DNA of 64,000 nt from Serratia sp. FDAARGOS_506 (GTDB lineage: Bacteria > Pseudomonadota > Gammaproteobacteria > Enterobacterales > Enterobacteriaceae): NCBI RefSeq assembly GCF_003812745.1, contig NZ_CP033831.1, positions 2,666,001 through 2,730,000 of the forward strand, read 5' to 3'. Within the stretch, counting starts at the first letter, position 1; the number at the start of each line of letters is the position of its first letter. This document shows positions 27,500 through 53,619 of the stretch, piece by piece. The notes under the pieces are model-generated. The model saw nothing but the letters and a program-made list of their open reading frames with translations, was not told the DNA's origin and searched no databases. The translations under genes and the position numbers were made by a program.

Positions 27500-27708
27500 C
27501 GCATCTGCAGCACCGTAATCTACATTGGTGCTTTCTCGTTTCAACACCGCACCGATCAGCATCCCGCTCTTATCTGTACGTAATAAACCCTTACCAAGCC
27601 ATTATCCGTTGTGTTCTGTGAGGTTAATGTCTGTGTTTTTAATCCATTAAACACTAAGTGCGCAAATATGAAAATATCAGCGGACTTTTCGCGCAGTTTT
27701 AGGTATTT

Positions 27709-38220: not shown

Positions 38221-38973
38221 TTACTTCGCTTTACCCTGGTTTGCCACGGCCGCCGCTTTTGCAGCGATCTCGTCGGCGTTACCCAGGTAGTAACGTTTGG
38301 TCGGTTTGAAGTTCTCGTCGAATTCATATACCAACGGCACGCCAGTTGGGATGTTCAGTTCGAGGATTTCGTCTTCGCTCAGGTTATCCAGGTATTTCAC
38401 CAGTGCGCGCAGCGAGTTGCCGTGCGCCGCAACGATCACGCGCTCGCCGCTCTTGATGCGTGGCAGGATCTCTTCGTCCCAGTAAGGGATAACGCGATCG
38501 ATGGTCAGCGCCAGGCTTTCGGTCAGCGGCAGCTCTTGCTCGGTCAGAGAGGCGTAGCGCGGATCGTGGCCAGGGTAACGTTCGTCTTCTTTGGTCAGTT
38601 CTGGTGGGGTCACCGCGAAGCCGCGACGCCATTGTTTCACCTGCTCGTCGCCGTATTTTTCAGCGGTTTCCGCTTTGTTCAGACCCTGCAGCGCGCCGTA
38701 GTGACGTTCGTTCAGCTTCCAGGATTTTTCGGTCGGCAACCAGGCCTGATCCAGCTCGTCGAGGATGTTCCACAGGGTGTGGATCGCGCGCTTCAGTACG
38801 GAGGTGTAAGCGAAGTCGAAAGTGAAACCTTCTTCTTTCAACAGCTTGCCTGCTGCTTTCGCTTCGGTGCGGCCCTTGTCGGACAGATCAACATCATACC
38901 AACCGGTGAAGCGGTTTTCTTGGTTCCACTGGCTTTCGCCGTGACGCACCAGAACCAGCTTAGTTACAGCCAT
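38221..38973 (-). CDS. gpmA: 2,3-bisphosphoglycerate-dependent phosphoglycerate mutase
   Basis: A 250-residue glycolytic enzyme that interconverts 3- and 2-phosphoglycerate. The phosphohistidine motif [10 protein letters not shown] lies at the N-terminus, with [15 protein letters not shown] in the middle and the second histidine in [17 protein letters not shown]. Length and sequence match E. coli GpmA. TTAAGGAG lies before the start. A Fur-like box lies 30-50 bases upstream, in line with reported Fur control of gpmA in E. coli. Confidence 0.98.
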
Positions 38974-39005: not shown

Positions 39006-39024
39006 GATAACGAAAATCATTATA
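39006..39024. promoter_or_regulatory. Fur box upstream of gpmA
   Basis: GATAACGAAAATCATTATA matches the 19-base Fur consensus GATAATGATAATCATTATC at 16 positions. It lies about 32 bases before the gpmA start codon, a promoter-proximal position. Confidence 0.6.
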
Positions 39025-47287: not shown

Positions 47288-47392
47288 AGCGCATCCTGTC
47301 GGCAGCAAAAATCTTATTGTCGCCGATTTGGCGGCAAAGCGCCAAACGCACTGCGGTGGAGCGCGGGGCAATAAAGACTGGTATTGCTTTAT

Positions 47393-47412
47393 TGTTATAA
47401 TATAACATAACA
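47393..47412. promoter_or_regulatory. ModE-like inverted repeat upstream of the TonB-receptor operon
   Basis: TGTTAT and ATAACA arms flank eight bases, and an inner ATATAAC half-site is also present. The arms match the ModE half-site GTTAT/ATAAC, but the spacing is eight instead of the 12 found in the box before modA. It could be a ModE site of unusual spacing or a site of another regulator. Confidence 0.3.
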
Positions 47413-47475
47413 GAAAAACGATAAGGCTTTACGCCGGCTGCGGCCGGTTTTTATTTCACCACAGGGATGCTCCAC

Positions 47476-49635
47476 ATGAGTACGACACACCGGCGTTTTG
47501 GCACGCCCAGAAAATCTTTATGCCTTGCCGCCTGGGTCGGCGGCGCACTGACGGCGCCGCTGGCTTTCGCCGCCGACTGCGATAAAGCTCGCAATGCTAC
47601 GGGATGCGAAGAACAGCTCACCGTGGAGGCGGTGGCCCCCGCCGGGCGCTACGATGCGTTGAGCGCCGTGAGCCGCAGTGCTTCGCAGCTCGGGCTGAGC
47701 GCTCGGGAGACGCCGCGCAGCGTCGATATCATCAGCGCACGGGCGATTCAACAGCGGGGCGATCGCTCGCTGGCCGCCGCCGTCGAGCACGCCACCGGTC
47801 TGTCCGGCGTCGCTTCGCCAACGTTGTCCAACAACTTTTCCGCGCGCGGTTTCCGGCCTATCGCCTGGCTGTATAACGGCGTAGAGATGCCTGGCAGCAC
47901 GCTGCAGCTGGGCGATCCGGCGCATTACGACAGCATCGAGATACTGCGCGGGCCGGGATCGGCCTTGAACGGCCTGAGCGCCGCAGGCGGCAGCGTCAAC
48001 CTGATTTCGCGGCGGCCGACCTTCAGCCGCCAGCCGCTCGAGCTCGATTATGGCTTCGGCAGCTACCGCAGCCAGCGTCTGCATCTGGGGGCCGGCGGCG
48101 CGCTGGTGGACGATGCGGTGGCGTACCGGTTGGACGTCAGCGGCAACGACAGCGGCAGCAACGTGCAGTATGAACGCGATCGGCAGAAGCGGGTTTCCGG
48201 CTCGCTGCTGTTTAAGCTGACGGACGATGCGTTGTTGACGCTGAGCCTGGACCGCATGCTCAACCGCACCAACAATCCTTACTACGGCACGCCGCTGCTG
48301 GACGGGCGTATTGCCGGCGAGCTGCGCGATATCAATTACAACAACCTGACCGACAGCCGCATCCAGAGCAACGCCACCGCATTTCAGGCCAGCCTGGACT
48401 GGTTTATGACGCCCGAAGTGGAATGGCATAACCAATTCTATTACTACAGCGGCTTTCGCGAATGGCGTAACGTCGAGCGCTTCCGCGTCGCGGCGGCGGC
48501 CCGGCCCGGCGACGTCAATCGCGACTCCTTCGGCGCCCTGGCGCACGACGACGATCTGATCGGCAACCGCAGTTCGCTGGTGTTCGACCGCGCCATCGCC
48601 GGTTTTGATAACCGGTTGCTGGTCGGCCTCGATCTGAGCAAGCGGCATTTTCAGTATTATTCCAACGGTTTCCCCGGCTCGGAAGACGTACCGCTTGGCG
48701 CGCCGCCCAGAGAGCCGTTCGCCCAGGGTACCGACCGCCAACGCGCGCCGGTGCGCCACGTCACCCAGAACCAGTACGCCGCCTTTCTCGAGGATCGCTT
48801 CAGCCTGACCGAGCGTTTAGCGTTGCTGGGCCAGCTGCGCTACAACCATATGAACATGGACTGGCGCTTCCAGGGGCCGCAGGAAGAGAGCCGCGCGCAC
48901 ACCTACGTTTTCAGCACCTGGAGCCTGGGCCCCAGCTATGCATTGACCGATAACCTCACGCTCTACGCCAACTACACCACCGGCCAGGAGCCTGGCAACG
49001 ATCTGTTCTTCCTCAGCCCAACGCAGACCGATCTGCCGCTGACACGAGCGCGCCAGTGGGAGGCCGGCGCCAAAGGGCAGTTCTGGGGTAACAAGGGCGA
49101 GGCGACGCTGGCGCTGTATGAACTGCGCAAGGACAACCTGTTTGTGCCCGACGCGCAGCGGCCGGATGCGTTGAACGCGGTAGGCAGGCAGACGTCGCGC
49201 GGCATTGAGCTTGGCGTGGTGCTGCGTCCCGACGAGCGCTGGGAGCTGGCCGGCAACGCCGCCTACACGCATGCCCGCTACGACGACTACCGCGGCGGCA
49301 GCCCGCTGCGCAGCTACAACGGCAATCTCCCGGCCTATATCCCGGACTGGACCGCCAACCTCAGCGTGCATTATCAGGCGACGGAACGCCTGGGGCTGGC
49401 TTCTTCACTGCGCTACGTCGGCAGCAGTTACAACGACGACGCCAATCAGCGCAAGATGCGCGCGTACACCACGCTCGATCTGGCGGCGGACTATCAGTTG
49501 ACGCCGATCGTTGATGTCGGTTTTCGCATTCGCAACGCTACCAACCAGCTGTACGCCTATCAGCGCACCTACCCGGACCAGGCGCTGATCGCGCCGCCGC
49601 GCAGCTATGAAACCTTCGTATCGGTCAGGTTCTGA
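47476..49635 (+). CDS. TonB-dependent outer-membrane receptor (siderophore/metal-chelate type)
   Basis: A 719-residue outer-membrane receptor. Signal peptide (about 1-36, ending PLAFA), a short N-terminal part with two Cys (ADCDKARNATGC) and a TonB-box-like EEQLTVEAV. The plug domain carries SARETPRSVDIISARAI and LRGPGSALNGLSAAGGSVNLISRRP, and a 22-strand-type barrel ends in the terminal Phe (YETFVSVRF). ATG 47476 has AGGG nine bases upstream; an in-frame ATG lies three codons earlier. It heads a five-gene operon with the binding protein five bases downstream. The ligand is unknown; the plug type is of the ferri-siderophore class, while the mod context suggests a molybdenum or tungsten chelate. 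Confidence 0.9.
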   Translation: MSTTHRRFGTPRKSLCLAAWVGGALTAPLAFAADCDKARNATGCEEQLTVEAVAPAGRYDALSAVSRSASQLGLSARETPRSVDIISARAIQQRGDRSLAAAVEHATGLSGVASPTLSNNFSARGFRPIAWLYNGVEMPGSTLQLGDPAHYDSIEILRGPGSALNGLSAAGGSVNLISRRPTFSRQPLELDYGFGSYRSQRLHLGAGGALVDDAVAYRLDVSGNDSGSNVQYERDRQKRVSGSLLFKLTDDALLTLSLDRMLNRTNNPYYGTPLLDGRIAGELRDINYNNLTDSRIQSNATAFQASLDWFMTPEVEWHNQFYYYSGFREWRNVERFRVAAAARPGDVNRDSFGALAHDDDLIGNRSSLVFDRAIAGFDNRLLVGLDLSKRHFQYYSNGFPGSEDVPLGAPPREPFAQGTDRQRAPVRHVTQNQYAAFLEDRFSLTERLALLGQLRYNHMNMDWRFQGPQEESRAHTYVFSTWSLGPSYALTDNLTLYANYTTGQEPGNDLFFLSPTQTDLPLTRARQWEAGAKGQFWGNKGEATLALYELRKDNLFVPDAQRPDALNAVGRQTSRGIELGVVLRPDERWELAGNAAYTHARYDDYRGGSPLRSYNGNLPAYIPDWTANLSVHYQATERLGLASSLRYVGSSYNDDANQRKMRAYTTLDLAADYQLTPIVDVGFRIRNATNQLYAYQRTYPDQALIAPPRSYETFVSVRF

Positions 49636-49639
49636 CGGC

Positions 49640-50635
49640 GTGAAGCGCTGGCTTGCTCTGCTGTTGTGCGCCCTGGGATTGGGCGGGGGCGTGCCGCTGC
49701 ATGCTGAGGCCGTCGGCCTGCAAAATTGCGGGCTGACGCGCGATTACCCGCAGCCGCCGCAGCGGGTGCTGGTTTACGCCAACCCGGCGCTGGAAAACCT
49801 GCTGGCGCTGGGGCTGGCTGACCGCGCAATCGGCGTGGTCGGGTATGACCGCACGCGCGATCCCGCCCCGACGGCGTCGGCCGATGTGCTGCAGGCGCCC
49901 ACCAGCCCGGCACCGCCCACGGCGGAAGCGTTGTTGCTGATGCGGCCGGATTTTGTTTATTCGGCCAGCTATTACTGGCTGCACAGCTCGGAAACGCCCG
50001 ATCGGGCGCGGCTGGAGGAATGGGGCATCGGCACTTATCTCTCTCCCGGCGCCTGCAGCGGCCAGCAAAGCGCGATCGCCGCGGCGCTGACGTTCGAGGA
50101 TATTTTCACCGAGCTGCGGGAACTGGCGCGCATTTTCAACGTCAGCCGCGCCGGTGAAGCGCTGATCGAACGGCTGCGCGGGCAGCTGAGGGCGCTTGAG
50201 CCGCAGCGCGCTCAATTGCCGCATTGGCGTCTGCTGTGGTGGTATGCCGGCGTGCAGACGCCCTATGTGGCGGGGTGCTGCGGCGCGCCAGGCTTGCTGA
50301 GCCGCAGCGTCGGCAGCGAGAACCTGTTCGGCGATCGGCCCGAGCTGTGGCCGACGGTGTCCTGGGAAACCATCGCCGCCCGCGATCCGGATGCGATCGT
50401 GCTTGGCGATCTGCCGCGCGGCGGCTTTGGCGACAGCGCGGCGGACAAGATCGCCTTTCTGGAGCATCACCCGCTGACCGCTACGCTGCGCGCCGTGCGT
50501 CAGCGGCGCTACGTGATCCTCCCCGGTTACGACATGGACCCTTCCGCCCGCACCGTGGCGGCGATGGGCCGTTTGATTCGAGGCCTGGCGGCTTTGCCGC
50601 CGCAGGCTCCGACATTTTTCAACAAGGAACCTTGA
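49640..50635 (+). CDS. Periplasmic substrate-binding protein (BtuF/MolA/FepB-type)
   Basis: A 331-residue protein starting at GTG 49640. A Sec signal peptide (KRWLALLLCALGLGGGVPLHAEA) lacks a proper lipobox. The mature part is a class-III (BtuF-like) binding protein: PQRVLVYANPALENLLALGLADRAIGVVGYD, then LLLMRPDFVYSASYY, and at the end DPDAIVLGDLPRGGFGDSAADK. It has four notable cysteines, in LQNCGLTRDY, SPGACSGQQ and AGCCGAPG. The NCG...PQRV start recalls binding proteins often annotated as cobalamin, iron-chelate or F420-0 binders. Ligand unknown. Five bases after the receptor and one before the methyltransferase. Confidence 0.85.
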   Translation: MKRWLALLLCALGLGGGVPLHAEAVGLQNCGLTRDYPQPPQRVLVYANPALENLLALGLADRAIGVVGYDRTRDPAPTASADVLQAPTSPAPPTAEALLLMRPDFVYSASYYWLHSSETPDRARLEEWGIGTYLSPGACSGQQSAIAAALTFEDIFTELRELARIFNVSRAGEALIERLRGQLRALEPQRAQLPHWRLLWWYAGVQTPYVAGCCGAPGLLSRSVGSENLFGDRPELWPTVSWETIAARDPDAIVLGDLPRGGFGDSAADKIAFLEHHPLTATLRAVRQRRYVILPGYDMDPSARTVAAMGRLIRGLAALPPQAPTFFNKEP

Positions 50636-50636
50636 T

Positions 50637-51392
50637 ATGACTGCCGTTTCATTCTCCTCGCTGCTGGACTCCTGGGATCGCCAGCAGGCGGCCTACATCG
50701 CCGAACGGGAAGCGCGTTTTAACGCCCAGCTGGACGTGCTGGCGCTGGCCGCCGGCCAGGATTTTCACGTGGTGGATTTGGCCTGTGGCCCAGGCTCGCT
50801 GAGCCTGCGCATTTTGCAGCGCTTTCCGCAGGCCAGGGTGACCGCCATCGATCTCGATCCGCTGCTGCTGGCGGTGGCGCGCGGCGCGCTGGCGGAGTAC
50901 GGTGATCGGATCCGCATTCTGCAGGCCGATCTGGCGGATCCCGCCTGTTTTTCCGCGCTGTCCGGCCCCGCGCCGCAGGCGGCGGTGTCCAGCACGGCGC
51001 TGCACTGGCTGATGCCCGAGCAGCAGCTGGCGCTGTACCGCAACGTTGCCGGGCTGCTGGCCGACGGCGGCGTGTTCCTGAACGCCGATCATCAGCGTTA
51101 TGACCAGCGCCAGCCGCGGCTGAAAGCATTGGCAGAGCGGCATGATGGGCAGACCCAACAGCGGGCTTGGGACGACGGCGTCGAGGATTGGGATCGCTGG
51201 TTTGCGGGCGCGCTGCAATCGCCGGCGCTGGCCGCTTATCAGGCCGAGCGTGAAGCGCTGTTTGCCGGCCGCCCGGTGCCGCCGCCGACGCCGGTGGATT
51301 TCCAGCTCGCGGCCCTCAGGCAAGCTGGTTTCAGCGAGGCGGGGACGGTGTGGCAGCTGTTGGACGACTATGTGATCGCAGGCTGGAAATAG
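50637..51392 (+). CDS. Class I SAM-dependent methyltransferase in the importer operon
   Basis: A 251-residue Rossmann-fold methyltransferase without signal peptide. Motif I is VVDLACGPGSLSL, the acidic residue after strand 2 is in VTAIDLDPLLLAVA, and further motifs are ILQADLAD and VSSTALHWL. The C-terminal part is variable. It starts one base after the binding-protein stop and the permease follows after one base, so it is clearly co-translated with the importer. It may modify the imported chelate in the cytoplasm. Substrate unknown. Confidence 0.85.
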   Translation: MTAVSFSSLLDSWDRQQAAYIAEREARFNAQLDVLALAAGQDFHVVDLACGPGSLSLRILQRFPQARVTAIDLDPLLLAVARGALAEYGDRIRILQADLADPACFSALSGPAPQAAVSSTALHWLMPEQQLALYRNVAGLLADGGVFLNADHQRYDQRQPRLKALAERHDGQTQQRAWDDGVEDWDRWFAGALQSPALAAYQAEREALFAGRPVPPPTPVDFQLAALRQAGFSEAGTVWQLLDDYVIAGWK

Positions 51393-51393
51393 C

Positions 51394-52419
51394 ATGATCC
51401 GGCGGTTACTGCCCGGCCGTGAGGCCGGCTGGCTGCTGTTGCTGGCGGCGGCGCTGCCGCTGGCCCTGCTGGGTGCCACCCTGTCGGGGCCAGCGCCGAT
51501 CGCGTGGCATGACGCCTGGCGTATCGTTTTCGGCGTCAGCGGCAGCGCGGCGACCGACGCCGAGGTGTATCAGCGCATCATCTGGTCGCTGCGGATGCCG
51601 CGCGCGCTGTTGGCGGCGCTGGCCGGCGCCGGGCTGGCGCTGGCGGGCACCGTGCTGCAGTCGCTTACCCGCAATCCGCTGGCCGATCCCTGGGTGCTGG
51701 GTATCTCCTCCGGCGCCGGCGTGGGGGCGGTAACGGTACTGGTATTGGGGCTGGGGGGCGGCCTGTTGTCGGTGTCCGGCGGCGCGTTTATCGGCGCGCT
51801 GGGAGCGTTTGCGTTGGTGATGCTGCTGGCCGGGCGTTCGCTGCAGGGGGAGTCCACGCTGTTTATTCTGGCCGGGGTGGCGGTGACGCAGTTGCTCTCT
51901 GCGCTGACTTCGCTGATCACCCTCTGGCAGGCGGATGCCAACGCCACGCGCGGCGTGATGTTCTGGCTGCTGGGATCGTTCAGCGACGCGCGCTGGCCGC
52001 AGGTCGGGCTGTGCGGGCTGGCGCTGGCGGCGGCGCTGCTGCTTTGTTGGCTGCGGGCGGGTGAACTGGACGCGCTGGCGTTCGGCGGCGTGACCGCCGC
52101 GTCGCTGGGGGTGGCGGTGGCTCCGCTGAAGCTGCTGCTGTATGTGGTGACCACCGCGCTGACGGCCGCGATCGTCGCGTTCAGCGGCGCGGTGGGATTT
52201 ATCGGGCTGACGGTGCCGCATGTCGCCCGGCGGCTGGTCGGCTCGCGGCATCGGCTGCTGTTGCCGGCCAGCGCGCTATGCGGCGCTCTGTTCGCCGTGG
52301 CGGCGGACACCCTGGCCAGAACGCTGTTTGCCCCGCGCGAGCTGCCGGTCGGCGTGCTGACGGCGCTGCTGGGGGTGCCGGTATTCCTGCTGTTGCTGTA
52401 TCGAAAGGTCAATGCATGA
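51394..52419 (+). CDS. FecCD-family ABC permease
   Basis: A 341-residue inner-membrane permease with about ten helices of the BtuC/FecCD/MolB type. Family motifs are LRMPRALLAALAGAGLALAGTVLQSLTRNPLADPWVLGISSGAGVG and the later FSGAVGFIGLTVPHVARRLVGSRHR with the coupling region to the ATPase. It would act as a homodimer. The ATPase start overlaps its stop (ATGA). Co-transcribed with the receptor, binding protein and methyltransferase. Confidence 0.92.
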   Translation: MIRRLLPGREAGWLLLLAAALPLALLGATLSGPAPIAWHDAWRIVFGVSGSAATDAEVYQRIIWSLRMPRALLAALAGAGLALAGTVLQSLTRNPLADPWVLGISSGAGVGAVTVLVLGLGGGLLSVSGGAFIGALGAFALVMLLAGRSLQGESTLFILAGVAVTQLLSALTSLITLWQADANATRGVMFWLLGSFSDARWPQVGLCGLALAAALLLCWLRAGELDALAFGGVTAASLGVAVAPLKLLLYVVTTALTAAIVAFSGAVGFIGLTVPHVARRLVGSRHRLLLPASALCGALFAVAADTLARTLFAPRELPVGVLTALLGVPVFLLLLYRKVNA

Positions 52420-53204
52420 CGATTGAAAAAGCGCGATCCGGCCTGTGCGCCGAAGCGGTGAGCTGGCGCGCGGGTACGCGCACGGTGCTGGAAAACCTTA
52501 GTTTCTGCGCCTTGCCCGGTGAGATCACCGGCGTGCTCGGCGTCAACGGCAGCGGTAAATCCACGCTGCTCAAGCTGCTGGCCGGGTTGCAGCCTGCCAC
52601 CGGGGGCCGCGTTTGGCTCGAAGGGCGCGAAATCGCCGCGTTTTCCGGGCGGGAGCGCGCCAGGCGTATCGCCTTTCTCGAGCAATCTGCCCCCGGCGCC
52701 TTCGCGCTGCCGGTGAAGGAGGCGGTGCTGCTGGGGCGCCTGGCTCATGTCGGCCGCTGGCGCAGTTTCGGCCCCGAAGATCGACGCCTCGCCGGGCGGG
52801 CGATGGAGCAAGTGGGCATCAGCCACCTGGCCGATCGCGATTGGCAACGGCTGTCCGGCGGCGAACGGCAGCGGGTGCACCTGGCGCGCGCGTTGGCGCA
52901 GCAAACGCCGTGGCTGCTGCTGGATGAGCCAGCCAACCATCTGGATATCGCCCATCAGCAGCAGTTTATGGCCTTGCTGCGGCGGCTGAAGCTCAGCGTG
53001 GTGGTGACGCTGCACGATCTGAATCTGGCGGCCTGCTATTGCGATCGGGTGGCGCTGCTGCAGCGGGGCGGGATCTGCGCGGCGGGCGCGCCGCGACAGG
53101 CGCTGACGCCGGAGAACATTCGCGCAGTGTACGGGGTAGAGGCCCGGCTGGCGGCGCCCGCCGGCTATGCGCCGCCGCTGATCTATTACCCCGCACCGGC
53201 ATGA
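52416..53204 (+). CDS. ABC importer ATPase (BtuD/FepC-type)
   Basis: A 262-residue ATPase with Walker A GVNGSGKSTLL, Q-loop region FLEQSAPGAF, signature LSGGERQRVHLARALAQ, Walker B WLLLDEPANHLD and the switch His in VVTLHDLNLAA. It is of the siderophore/cobalamin importer class. The ATG at 52416 overlaps the permease stop; a longer in-frame stretch upstream is noise inside the permease gene. It ends the five-gene operon; no clear terminator follows before acrZ 144 bases downstream. Confidence 0.92.
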   Translation: MTIEKARSGLCAEAVSWRAGTRTVLENLSFCALPGEITGVLGVNGSGKSTLLKLLAGLQPATGGRVWLEGREIAAFSGRERARRIAFLEQSAPGAFALPVKEAVLLGRLAHVGRWRSFGPEDRRLAGRAMEQVGISHLADRDWQRLSGGERQRVHLARALAQQTPWLLLDEPANHLDIAHQQQFMALLRRLKLSVVVTLHDLNLAACYCDRVALLQRGGICAAGAPRQALTPENIRAVYGVEARLAAPAGYAPPLIYYPAPA

Positions 53205-53348
53205 TCCCGGTGGAAAGGGCACGTTTAGCCGATCACAATTTCGCCCCGCTGGCTAAAATAACTCCGGTTTTGCCGATTTTTTGGGTTAGAATAACCCCTA
53301 TGCGGTGAAAGGCATTTGCCGCTCAATGGGCAGTTAAGCGAGGCTATC

Positions 53349-53498
53349 ATGTTGGAATTATTGAAAAGTCTGTTGTTTGCCGTGGTAATGGTGCCGGTGG
53401 TCATGGCGCTGATCCTCGGCCTGATCTACGGTTTTGGCGAAGTGTTCAACGTCTTCTCCAAAGTGGGCCGTTCGAAAGAAAACCGCACCCAGCACTGA
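53349..53498 (+). CDS. acrZ: AcrAB-TolC efflux pump accessory protein AcrZ
   Basis: A 49-residue single-helix inner-membrane protein ([21 protein letters not shown]...) almost identical to E. coli AcrZ, which binds AcrB and widens its drug range. The ATG at 53349 gives the exact family length. It lies between the importer operon and modA, the same neighbour (modA) as in E. coli. A GC hairpin at 53517-53538 follows. Confidence 0.93.
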
Positions 53499-53595: not shown

Positions 53596-53619
53596 CGTTA
53601 TATTATTTTTTATATAACG
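53596..53619. promoter_or_regulatory. ModE box upstream of modA
   Basis: CGTTATAT and ATATAACG form a perfect inverted repeat with an eight-base spacer, about 37 bases before the modA start. The GTTAT/ATAAC spacing of 12 matches the known E. coli modA operator. Molybdate-bound ModE should repress here. Confidence 0.88.

What the first reader, a model, noticed from the sequence alone, without database searches (positions are those of the whole stretch)
47476..53204. Five-gene receptor-ABC-methyltransferase importer placed between modEF and acrZ-modABC
In E. coli modE is followed directly by acrZ-modABC on the other strand. Here a complete outer- and inner-membrane import path (TonB receptor, BtuF-type binding protein, methyltransferase, FecCD permease, ATPase) sits between them with almost no intergenic space. 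FecCD-type importers can carry molybdate (MolBCA of Haemophilus influenzae), so an outer-membrane-dependent route for a molybdenum, tungsten or other metal chelate is plausible. The whole system has no recognised name.
Basis: partly seen in the sequence, partly recalled or inferred. Interest (0 to 1): 0.8.

Follow-up and report, generated by a model that had tools for sequence, protein, structure and literature searches.

The report
Zinc-controlled metal-chelate importer with methyltransferase
Many Serratia and some other enterobacteria carry a gene cassette that looks built to pull a metal bound to a small molecule across both membranes when zinc is scarce, with an unexplained methyltransferase inside it; its place beside the molybdate genes was seen only in Serratia and says little about its job.

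Summary
The five genes are real: TonB receptor, Peripla_BP_2 binding protein, SAM methyltransferase, FecCD permease, ATPase, packed between modE and acrZ-modABC. The molybdenum reading fails. An exact Zur-type (zinc-repressor) core lies about 64 bp before the receptor; no ModE- or Fur-type site lies there within three mismatches. A matrix from seven other Zur-type sites of the genome puts the receptor-upstream stretch first in 19 of 19 loci from eight genera. The eight non-Serratia genomes checked carry a four-gene version without ATPase, none beside mod genes; one lies about 5 kb from znuA-znuC. Six Serratia genomes lacking the cassette show an empty 189-191 bp modE-acrZ gap without the box. 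Nonomuraea, an actinomycete, keeps binding protein-methyltransferase-permease-ATPase in this order at 38-59% identity. Best reading: a horizontally spread, Zur-controlled importer of a metal chelate (zinc, or cobalt as substitute) whose methyltransferase acts on the carrier. It resembles Pseudomonas PA2911-PA2914 but has the extra methyltransferase. Ligand, Zur binding and enzyme activity are inferred, not shown.

The parts
47350..53218 (+). inserted cassette, approximate limits, between modE and acrZ
   Evidence: flanks match the unbroken 189-191 bp modE-acrZ gap of Serratia genomes without the cassette; limits read by eye
47389..47411 (.). Zur-type box TTATTGTTATAATATAACATAAC (15-base core 47393-47407, no mismatch to TGTTATANTATAACA)
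   Evidence: highest-scoring place of the whole window (30.5 bits; the next place that does not overlap it scores 7.5)
47467..49635 (+). TonB-dependent receptor (start probably 47476)
   Evidence: Pfam PF07715 and PF00593; nearest solved sequence CrtA, 9rvq
49607..50635 (+). periplasmic binding protein, Peripla_BP_2 family
   Evidence: PF01497; nearest solved sequence 4mlz
50637..51392 (+). class I SAM-dependent methyltransferase, no signal peptide by eye
   Evidence: PF13649; CGPGS and D72, D74 invariant in the 9 copies aligned
51394..52419 (+). FecCD-type permease
   Evidence: PF01032, 290.6 bits
52416..53204 (+). ABC ATPase; found with the cassette in the Serratia copies only
   Evidence: PF00005; in 8 of 8 non-Serratia carriers not in the stretch read and no match above 46% identity
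46496..47287 (-). modE, left neighbour, not judged part of the system
   Evidence: NCBIfam NF007957
53597..53618 (.). ModE-type palindrome before modA, not part of the system
   Evidence: GTTATAT-N8-ATATAAC, the only exact match in the window; the pattern was taken from this very site

Best explanation
The five genes form one Zur-repressed operon for taking up a metal held by a small chelator when zinc is short. Steps, with status. (1) Zinc-loaded Zur sits on the box before the receptor and lets go when zinc falls: inferred from the site, not shown. (2) The TonB-dependent receptor takes the metal chelate through the outer membrane: inferred from family. (3) The binding protein hands it to the FecCD permease and ATPase: inferred from family; in the four-gene versions the ATPase would have to come from another importer of the cell. 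(4) In the cytoplasm the methyltransferase alters the imported chelator, or a partner of it, so that the metal is released or the chelator cannot rebind: weakest step. The cargo is most likely zinc, with cobalt as a zinc substitute the close second. The chelator is probably made by other organisms, since the window's genome has no staphylopine-type dehydrogenase and no biosynthetic genes were seen beside the cassette. The unit spreads horizontally; its seat beside mod in Serratia is a chance landing place.
For: Exact Zur-type core about 64 bp before the receptor start at 47476; chance expectation for up to 2 mismatches in the window is 0.02. The same pattern finds 13 places in the genome (12 sites, two overlap at folE2) against 4 for the reversed control; among them I read rpmE2, znuA/znuC and zinT (labels recalled from the sequences), and Pfam confirms folE2, a DksA and an amidase. 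A matrix from seven of these sites, ours left out, gives the receptor-upstream stretch the top place in 19 of 19 loci (15.6-30.5; the best other stretch apart from a znu box is 11.9; 940 stretches). The 6 empty sites have no such box. In G469 the cassette lies about 5 kb from znuA-znuC, which has its own box. The receptor's nearest solved relative is CrtA, an importer of chelated copper, with E337 and H358 kept. The methyltransferase keeps its SAM motif in the 9 copies aligned and stands with the same transporter in Nonomuraea and behind a different ABC importer in Streptomyces.
Against: No expression, binding or uptake data. The Zur pattern was typed from recalled consensus after I had seen the site, and the seven training sites were picked with that pattern; left out in turn, six score 20.5-25.2 but the znu site only 7.5. 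The reversed control still finds 4 places against 13. In L084 the site is about 0.7 kb before the receptor, and in L087 the receptor is broken. Zur control says when the operon works, not what it carries. No biosynthetic gene for a chelator was seen beside it. The ATPase is missing from 8 of 8 non-Serratia copies. No structure model could be made.
Confidence: 0.72

Rival explanations
1. The same Zur-controlled importer, but carrying cobalt (as a metallophore complex) to replace zinc, as proposed for PA2911-PA2914 and cobalt-pyochelin in P. aeruginosa. This overlaps with the best explanation and differs only in the main cargo.
For: Same gene kinds and Zur control; the paper reports lower cobalt in the PA2914 mutant (PMC11481552, abstract and passages).
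Against: I did not have the PA2911-PA2914 sequences, so homology beyond family is untested; that operon as described has no methyltransferase.
Confidence: 0.17
2. Copper-chelate importer like CrtA.
For: Best solved match of the receptor is CrtA of Bordetella, E = 7.9e-64; CrtA E337 and the essential H358 align with E337 and H360, both invariant in 11 cassette receptors.
Against: Only 2 of the 6 CrtA site residues are kept by my hand reading; a binding protein, not the PepSY gene usual for crtA, follows the receptor; the box is of the Zur kind.
Confidence: 0.04
3. Ferric xenosiderophore importer that also happens to be under Zur.
For: The receptor scores near the siderophore-receptor subfamily (210.3 bits, cut-off 223.5); many FecCD transporters carry ferric chelates (my knowledge).
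Against: No Fur-type site within three mismatches at the operon (weaker Fur sites would be missed); Zur-type box in 19 of 19 loci.
Confidence: 0.04
4. Molybdenum or tungsten chelate importer in a mod regulon.
For: Position between modE and modABC in the Serratia copies read.
Against: Cassette away from mod genes in 8 of 8 non-Serratia genomes; no ModE-type site within three mismatches at the operon; MolA (entry codes recalled) not among the 20 solved relatives of the binding protein at E 1e-5; the empty sites fit a simple insertion.
Confidence: 0.02
5. Corrinoid (B12-type) importer under zinc control.
For: BtuF and BtuC are distant relatives; a Zur-linked cobN operon exists in P. aeruginosa (PMC4542158, passages).
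Against: BtuF 29.6 bits against a cut-off of 234, BtuC models 233.9 against 461 and 208 against 334; no cobalamin riboswitch at gathering score in the window.
Confidence: 0.03

Closest known systems
PA2911-PA2914 of Pseudomonas aeruginosa
   Same: TonB receptor plus ATPase, binding protein and permease of the siderophore/B12 kind; Zur box; zinc-repressed (PMC4542158 passages; PMC11481552 abstract and passages)
   Different: no methyltransferase in the operon as described; gene order receptor-ATPase-binding protein-permease; sequence comparison not done here
Binding protein-methyltransferase-FecCD-ATPase unit of Nonomuraea gerenzanensis (L148)
   Same: same four inner parts in the same order, 38, 48, 59 and 47% identity
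   Different: no receptor match in the 32.7 kb read; a different, actinobacterial Zur-like palindrome at the start of the binding protein, a lead only
CrtA copper-chelate transporter (9rvq)
   Same: receptor family and the site residues E337 and H358
   Different: four of six site residues differ by hand reading; other neighbours; other regulator
Opine-type zincophore clusters with FecCD importers
   Same: FecCD importer; some clusters carry an extra PF13649 methyltransferase (PMC7438024 passages)
   Different: no staphylopine-type dehydrogenase in the window's genome; 2 of the 18 carriers tested have one
MolBCA of Haemophilus influenzae
   Same: FecCD-type importer (recalled)
   Different: MolA not among the 20 solved relatives found; no mod link in the 8 non-Serratia copies

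Membership tests
Zur regulon | Zur-type box before the first gene, kept in relatives | tested here: met
   19 of 19 loci, 17 of them within 100 bp of the receptor start used
Zur regulon | zinc-dependent repression and Zur binding | not testable with these tools
   needs bench work
ModE regulon | ModE-type palindrome at the operon | tested here: not met
   three matches within 3 mismatches in the window, at 27702, 44039 and (exact) before modA at 53597; none at the receptor
ModE regulon | linkage to mod genes across genera | tested here: not met
   0 of 8 non-Serratia genomes in the stretches read
Fur regulon | Fur box at the operon | tested here: not met
   one site within 3 mismatches in the window, at 39006; weaker sites not sought
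FecCD/BtuCD-type ABC importer | PF01497, PF01032 and PF00005 proteins encoded together | tested here: met
   ATPase absent in the four-gene versions
TonB-dependent transporter | plug and barrel domains | tested here: met
   PF07715 and PF00593
TIGR01783 siderophore receptors | curated score 223.5 | tested here: not met
   210.3
CrtA copper transporters | six conserved site residues | tested here: not met
   2 of 6 by hand reading
BtuFCD vitamin B12 importer | curated scores of BtuF and BtuC | tested here: not met
   29.6/234; 233.9/461 and 208/334
F420-0 ABC importer (TIGR03868/03869/03873) | curated scores | tested here: not met
   182.0/392.4, 286.3/437.35, 279.6/372.4
Opine zincophore system | staphylopine-type dehydrogenase PF10100 in the genome | tested here: not met
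   absent in G000; present in 2 of 18 carriers tested (of 28 carriers known) and 0 of 6 non-carriers
MolBCA | binding protein like MolA | tested here: inconclusive
   MolA (entry codes recalled) not among 20 hits at E 1e-5; no direct comparison made
PA2911-PA2914 type | homologous receptor and importer | not tested
   sequences not at hand

The most novel reading that the evidence does not exclude
The methyltransferase is a working part of metal acquisition: it methylates the imported metallophore in the cytoplasm to free the metal or to mark the spent carrier, a release step other than reduction, hydrolysis or exchange. It stands with this transporter in an actinomycete and in enterobacteria, and its relative behind an Opp-type importer in Streptomyces suggests that it follows the ligand rather than the transporter.
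Probability: 0.3. Interest if true: 0.78.

Novelty: new variant of a known kind. Interest (0 to 1): 0.55.

Why it matters
To my knowledge, active outer-membrane routes for zinc are little known in enterobacteria. A mobile, Zur-controlled importer in Serratia and seven further genera would help to explain how some strains cope with zinc shortage, and its methyltransferase makes a new question testable: whether bacteria methylate metal carriers to use their cargo. It also warns against reading function from a mod neighbourhood.

Tried and rejected
Thiamine: in L080 and L082 a TenA-ThiZXY-like set follows the permease, but a TPP riboswitch lies between, so it is a separate unit. Own opine zincophore: rejected for 16 of the 18 carriers tested. 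Plasmid-borne spread: no match of 60% identity or more to binding protein, methyltransferase or receptor in 72,556 plasmid records. Methyltransferase elsewhere in gammaproteobacteria: besides G000 itself only weak matches, at most 52.8 bits, in 4 of 369 genomes (that sample held no other carrier of the cassette). Leader hairpin as attenuator: a terminator-like stem at 47433-47448 (7 such sites found, 6.1 expected), and the consensus fold of 11 Serratia leaders did not support it. Actinobacterial Zur boxes: best matches to a recalled palindrome have 2 mismatches in L148 (the same place as in L146) and L151, 3 in L147 and 4, which shuffles often reach, in L145, L149, L150 and L152; in L148 one strand fits a looser pattern exactly, but the total of 3 matches there is within chance (13 of 100 shuffles). 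A lead only. Molybdate, Fur and B12 readings: see rivals. Descriptions in print were sought (listings, passages of six papers, the abstract of two and one section of one); nothing seen describes this cassette.
Full report
OBSERVATION. They run head to tail with gaps of one base or overlaps. modF-modE lie to the left on the other strand; acrZ (53349-53498) and modABC follow on the same strand. modF-modE / cassette / modABC was seen in 10 of 10 named Serratia loci (S. marcescens twice, nevei, ureilytica, bockelmannii, grimesii, quinivorans, liquefaciens, proteamaculans and one unnamed species) and in G447. The window belongs near the S. marcescens group: its binding protein is 91-92% identical there.

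DISTRIBUTION. The binding protein was the marker. In the genus, 20 of 30 genomes have it at E 1e-60 or better; of the 10 without, six have modE and four (1.5-3.6 Mb) have no modE match. In a sample of the family, 11 of 246 genomes match at E 1e-90 or better and the next best is at 7.9e-46: three Serratia (the window's genome included) and eight genomes of seven other genera. In an order-wide sample 24 of 295 genomes match at E 1e-10, but none besides the window's own genome above 32% identity. mod linkage was read for 11 Serratia loci besides the window, not for all 20 genomes.

NOT A MOD SYSTEM. Stretches of 16-19.5 kb around the eight non-Serratia copies hold receptor, binding protein, methyltransferase and permease in the same order but no match to ModE, ModF, ModA, ModB or AcrZ; one 29% ModC match in L081 I take for another ABC ATPase (in L081 the contig begins 2.2 kb before the receptor). 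By eye the neighbours differ from genome to genome, except between the two genomes of one genus (L080, L082). In six Serratia genomes without the cassette, modE and acrZ are 189-191 bp apart, and the sequences on both sides reappear at about 47349 and 53219 of the window (by eye). The cassette was therefore inserted there, or cleanly lost from the others. The exact ModE-type palindrome in the window is at modA (53597-53618); none lies at the receptor within three mismatches.

A ZUR-TYPE BOX. The 179 bp between modE and the receptor ORF hold TGTTATAATATAACA at 47393-47407, an exact match to the core pattern I used (0.02 expected in the window for up to two mismatches). The published E. coli motif TRWNAYRWTATAWYRTNWCA is quoted in PMC6103462 (passages). 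Across the own genome the pattern has 13 places with up to two mismatches, two of them overlapping, and the reversed control 4, so some of the 13 may be chance. Reading the genes beside them (labels recalled from the protein starts) gives rpmE2, zinT, znuA/znuC, a ZnuA-like ABC set, a DUF1007 protein and cysS; Pfam confirms folE2, a DksA protein and an amidase. Two 2-mismatch places, by a leuO-like and a secretion-system-like gene, look like noise. A 23-column matrix from seven sites, the receptor site excluded, was run over 940 stretches of 400 bases from 19 loci (11 Serratia, 8 others; the window not counted). The 20 best stretches are the receptor-upstream stretch of all 19 loci and the znuA/znuC box of L085; the 21st scores 11.9 against 15.6 or more. 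In 17 of 19 the site is 14-96 bp before the start used; in L084 it is about 0.7 kb away (by eye); L087 has a broken receptor. The six empty sites have no such site (best scores -5.9 to 4.0). Limits: the pattern was recalled, the training sites were chosen with it, and the znu site scores only 7.5 when left out. No Fur-type site within three mismatches is near.

PARTS. Receptor: nearest solved sequence is CrtA (9rvq), an importer of chelated copper (PMC12914433 abstract, one section and passages). Of the six CrtA ligand-site residues two align as identical (E337 with E337, H358 with H360), both invariant among 11 cassette receptors; W265 aligns with Y273, R395 with Y397, Y130 with G143 and Q356 with a gap. 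These were read by hand. Binding protein: related to BtuF, heme and siderophore binders, best solved match 4mlz; C41 and C150 are invariant in the 11 copies aligned, possibly a disulphide. Methyltransferase: CGPGS and D72, D74 invariant in the nine copies aligned (L082 and L087 not included). Its nearest solved relatives are assorted methyltransferases. ATPase: 71% identity in the S. proteamaculans-type genome G313, but only 34-46% in the eight non-Serratia carriers, best match per genome 40-44% (in G347 and G370 only 150 of 167 and of 220 candidates were scored). Those copies would have to share an ATPase with another importer; this is inference.

ORIGIN. The methyltransferase has only 4 weak matches in a sample of 369 gammaproteobacterial genomes besides the own one, but 48% identity in Nonomuraea gerenzanensis, where binding protein, methyltransferase, permease and ATPase stand in the same order without a receptor. 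A palindrome of the actinobacterial Zur kind overlaps the start of that binding protein (pattern recalled; evidence mixed across the other actinobacterial loci, see Tried and rejected). In Streptomyces NBC_01201 a 39% relative follows an Opp-type importer, about 8 kb from a gene annotated as a heavy-metal P-type ATPase, and in NBC_01717 a 34% relative stands among ATP-grasp and decarboxylase genes. Nearer actinobacterial binding proteins on plasmids (L145, L147) have no methyltransferase match beside them. I infer an inner-membrane module shared with actinomycetes that gained a receptor in enterobacteria; no tree was built.

MECHANISM. Best supported: release of Zur at low zinc, uptake of a metal chelate by receptor, binding protein and ABC importer, then methylation of the carrier. 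Regulation is strongly indicated by sequence, transport inferred from families, cargo inferred from regulation, methylation target a guess. PA2911-PA2914 is the nearest described system: Zur-controlled (PMC4542158, passages), proposed to import cobalt-pyochelin (PMC11481552, abstract and passages). For that reason cobalt is the main rival cargo. PMC7438024 (passages) reports that actinomycetes with FecCD-only zincophore clusters also carry an extra methyltransferase, which fits but proves nothing; 16 of the 18 carriers tested here lack an opine dehydrogenase.

VERDICT. Real, and more interesting for its zinc control and methyltransferase than for its mod neighbours. A new variant of a known kind (Zur-controlled TonB/FecCD importers). 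No description of it was seen, which cover open-licence papers only and of which I read listings, the abstract of two papers, one section of one and passages of six (PMC4542158, PMC11481552, PMC12914433, PMC7438024, PMC6103462, PMC3852070).

Noticed in passing
window 47433-47448: Terminator-like stem and a T run between the Zur-type box and the receptor start; the T run is invariant in 11 Serratia leaders but the stem letters differ and the consensus fold gave no support.
   Followed up: partly
window 39006-39024: Fur-like site (3 mismatches) just before an ORF that I read as phosphoglycerate mutase gpmA (38221-38973, label recalled).
   Followed up: no
L123 about 4906 (own genome C2:2576905): Exact Zur-type core before a gene that I read as cysS (label recalled).
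   Followed up: no
L124 about 8156 (own genome C2:4600655): Exact Zur-type core between an amidase-porin pair and an opposite operon of MFS exporter, binding protein, FecCD permease and ATPase, perhaps a second Zur-linked importer.
   Followed up: partly
L080 7206-7308 and L082 7400-7500: TPP riboswitch and TenA-ThiZXY-like genes directly after the four-gene cassette in two genomes of one genus.
   Followed up: partly
L085 514-2290: znuC and znuA (labels recalled) with a Zur-type box about 5 kb from the cassette in G469.
   Followed up: yes
L087 (G396): Cassette in decay: receptor in several pieces and a stop inside the binding-protein match, in a 3.6 Mb genome.
   Followed up: no
L149 9113-14771: Relative of the methyltransferase placed behind an Opp-type ABC importer in Streptomyces, about 8 kb from an annotated heavy-metal P-type ATPase.
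   Followed up: partly
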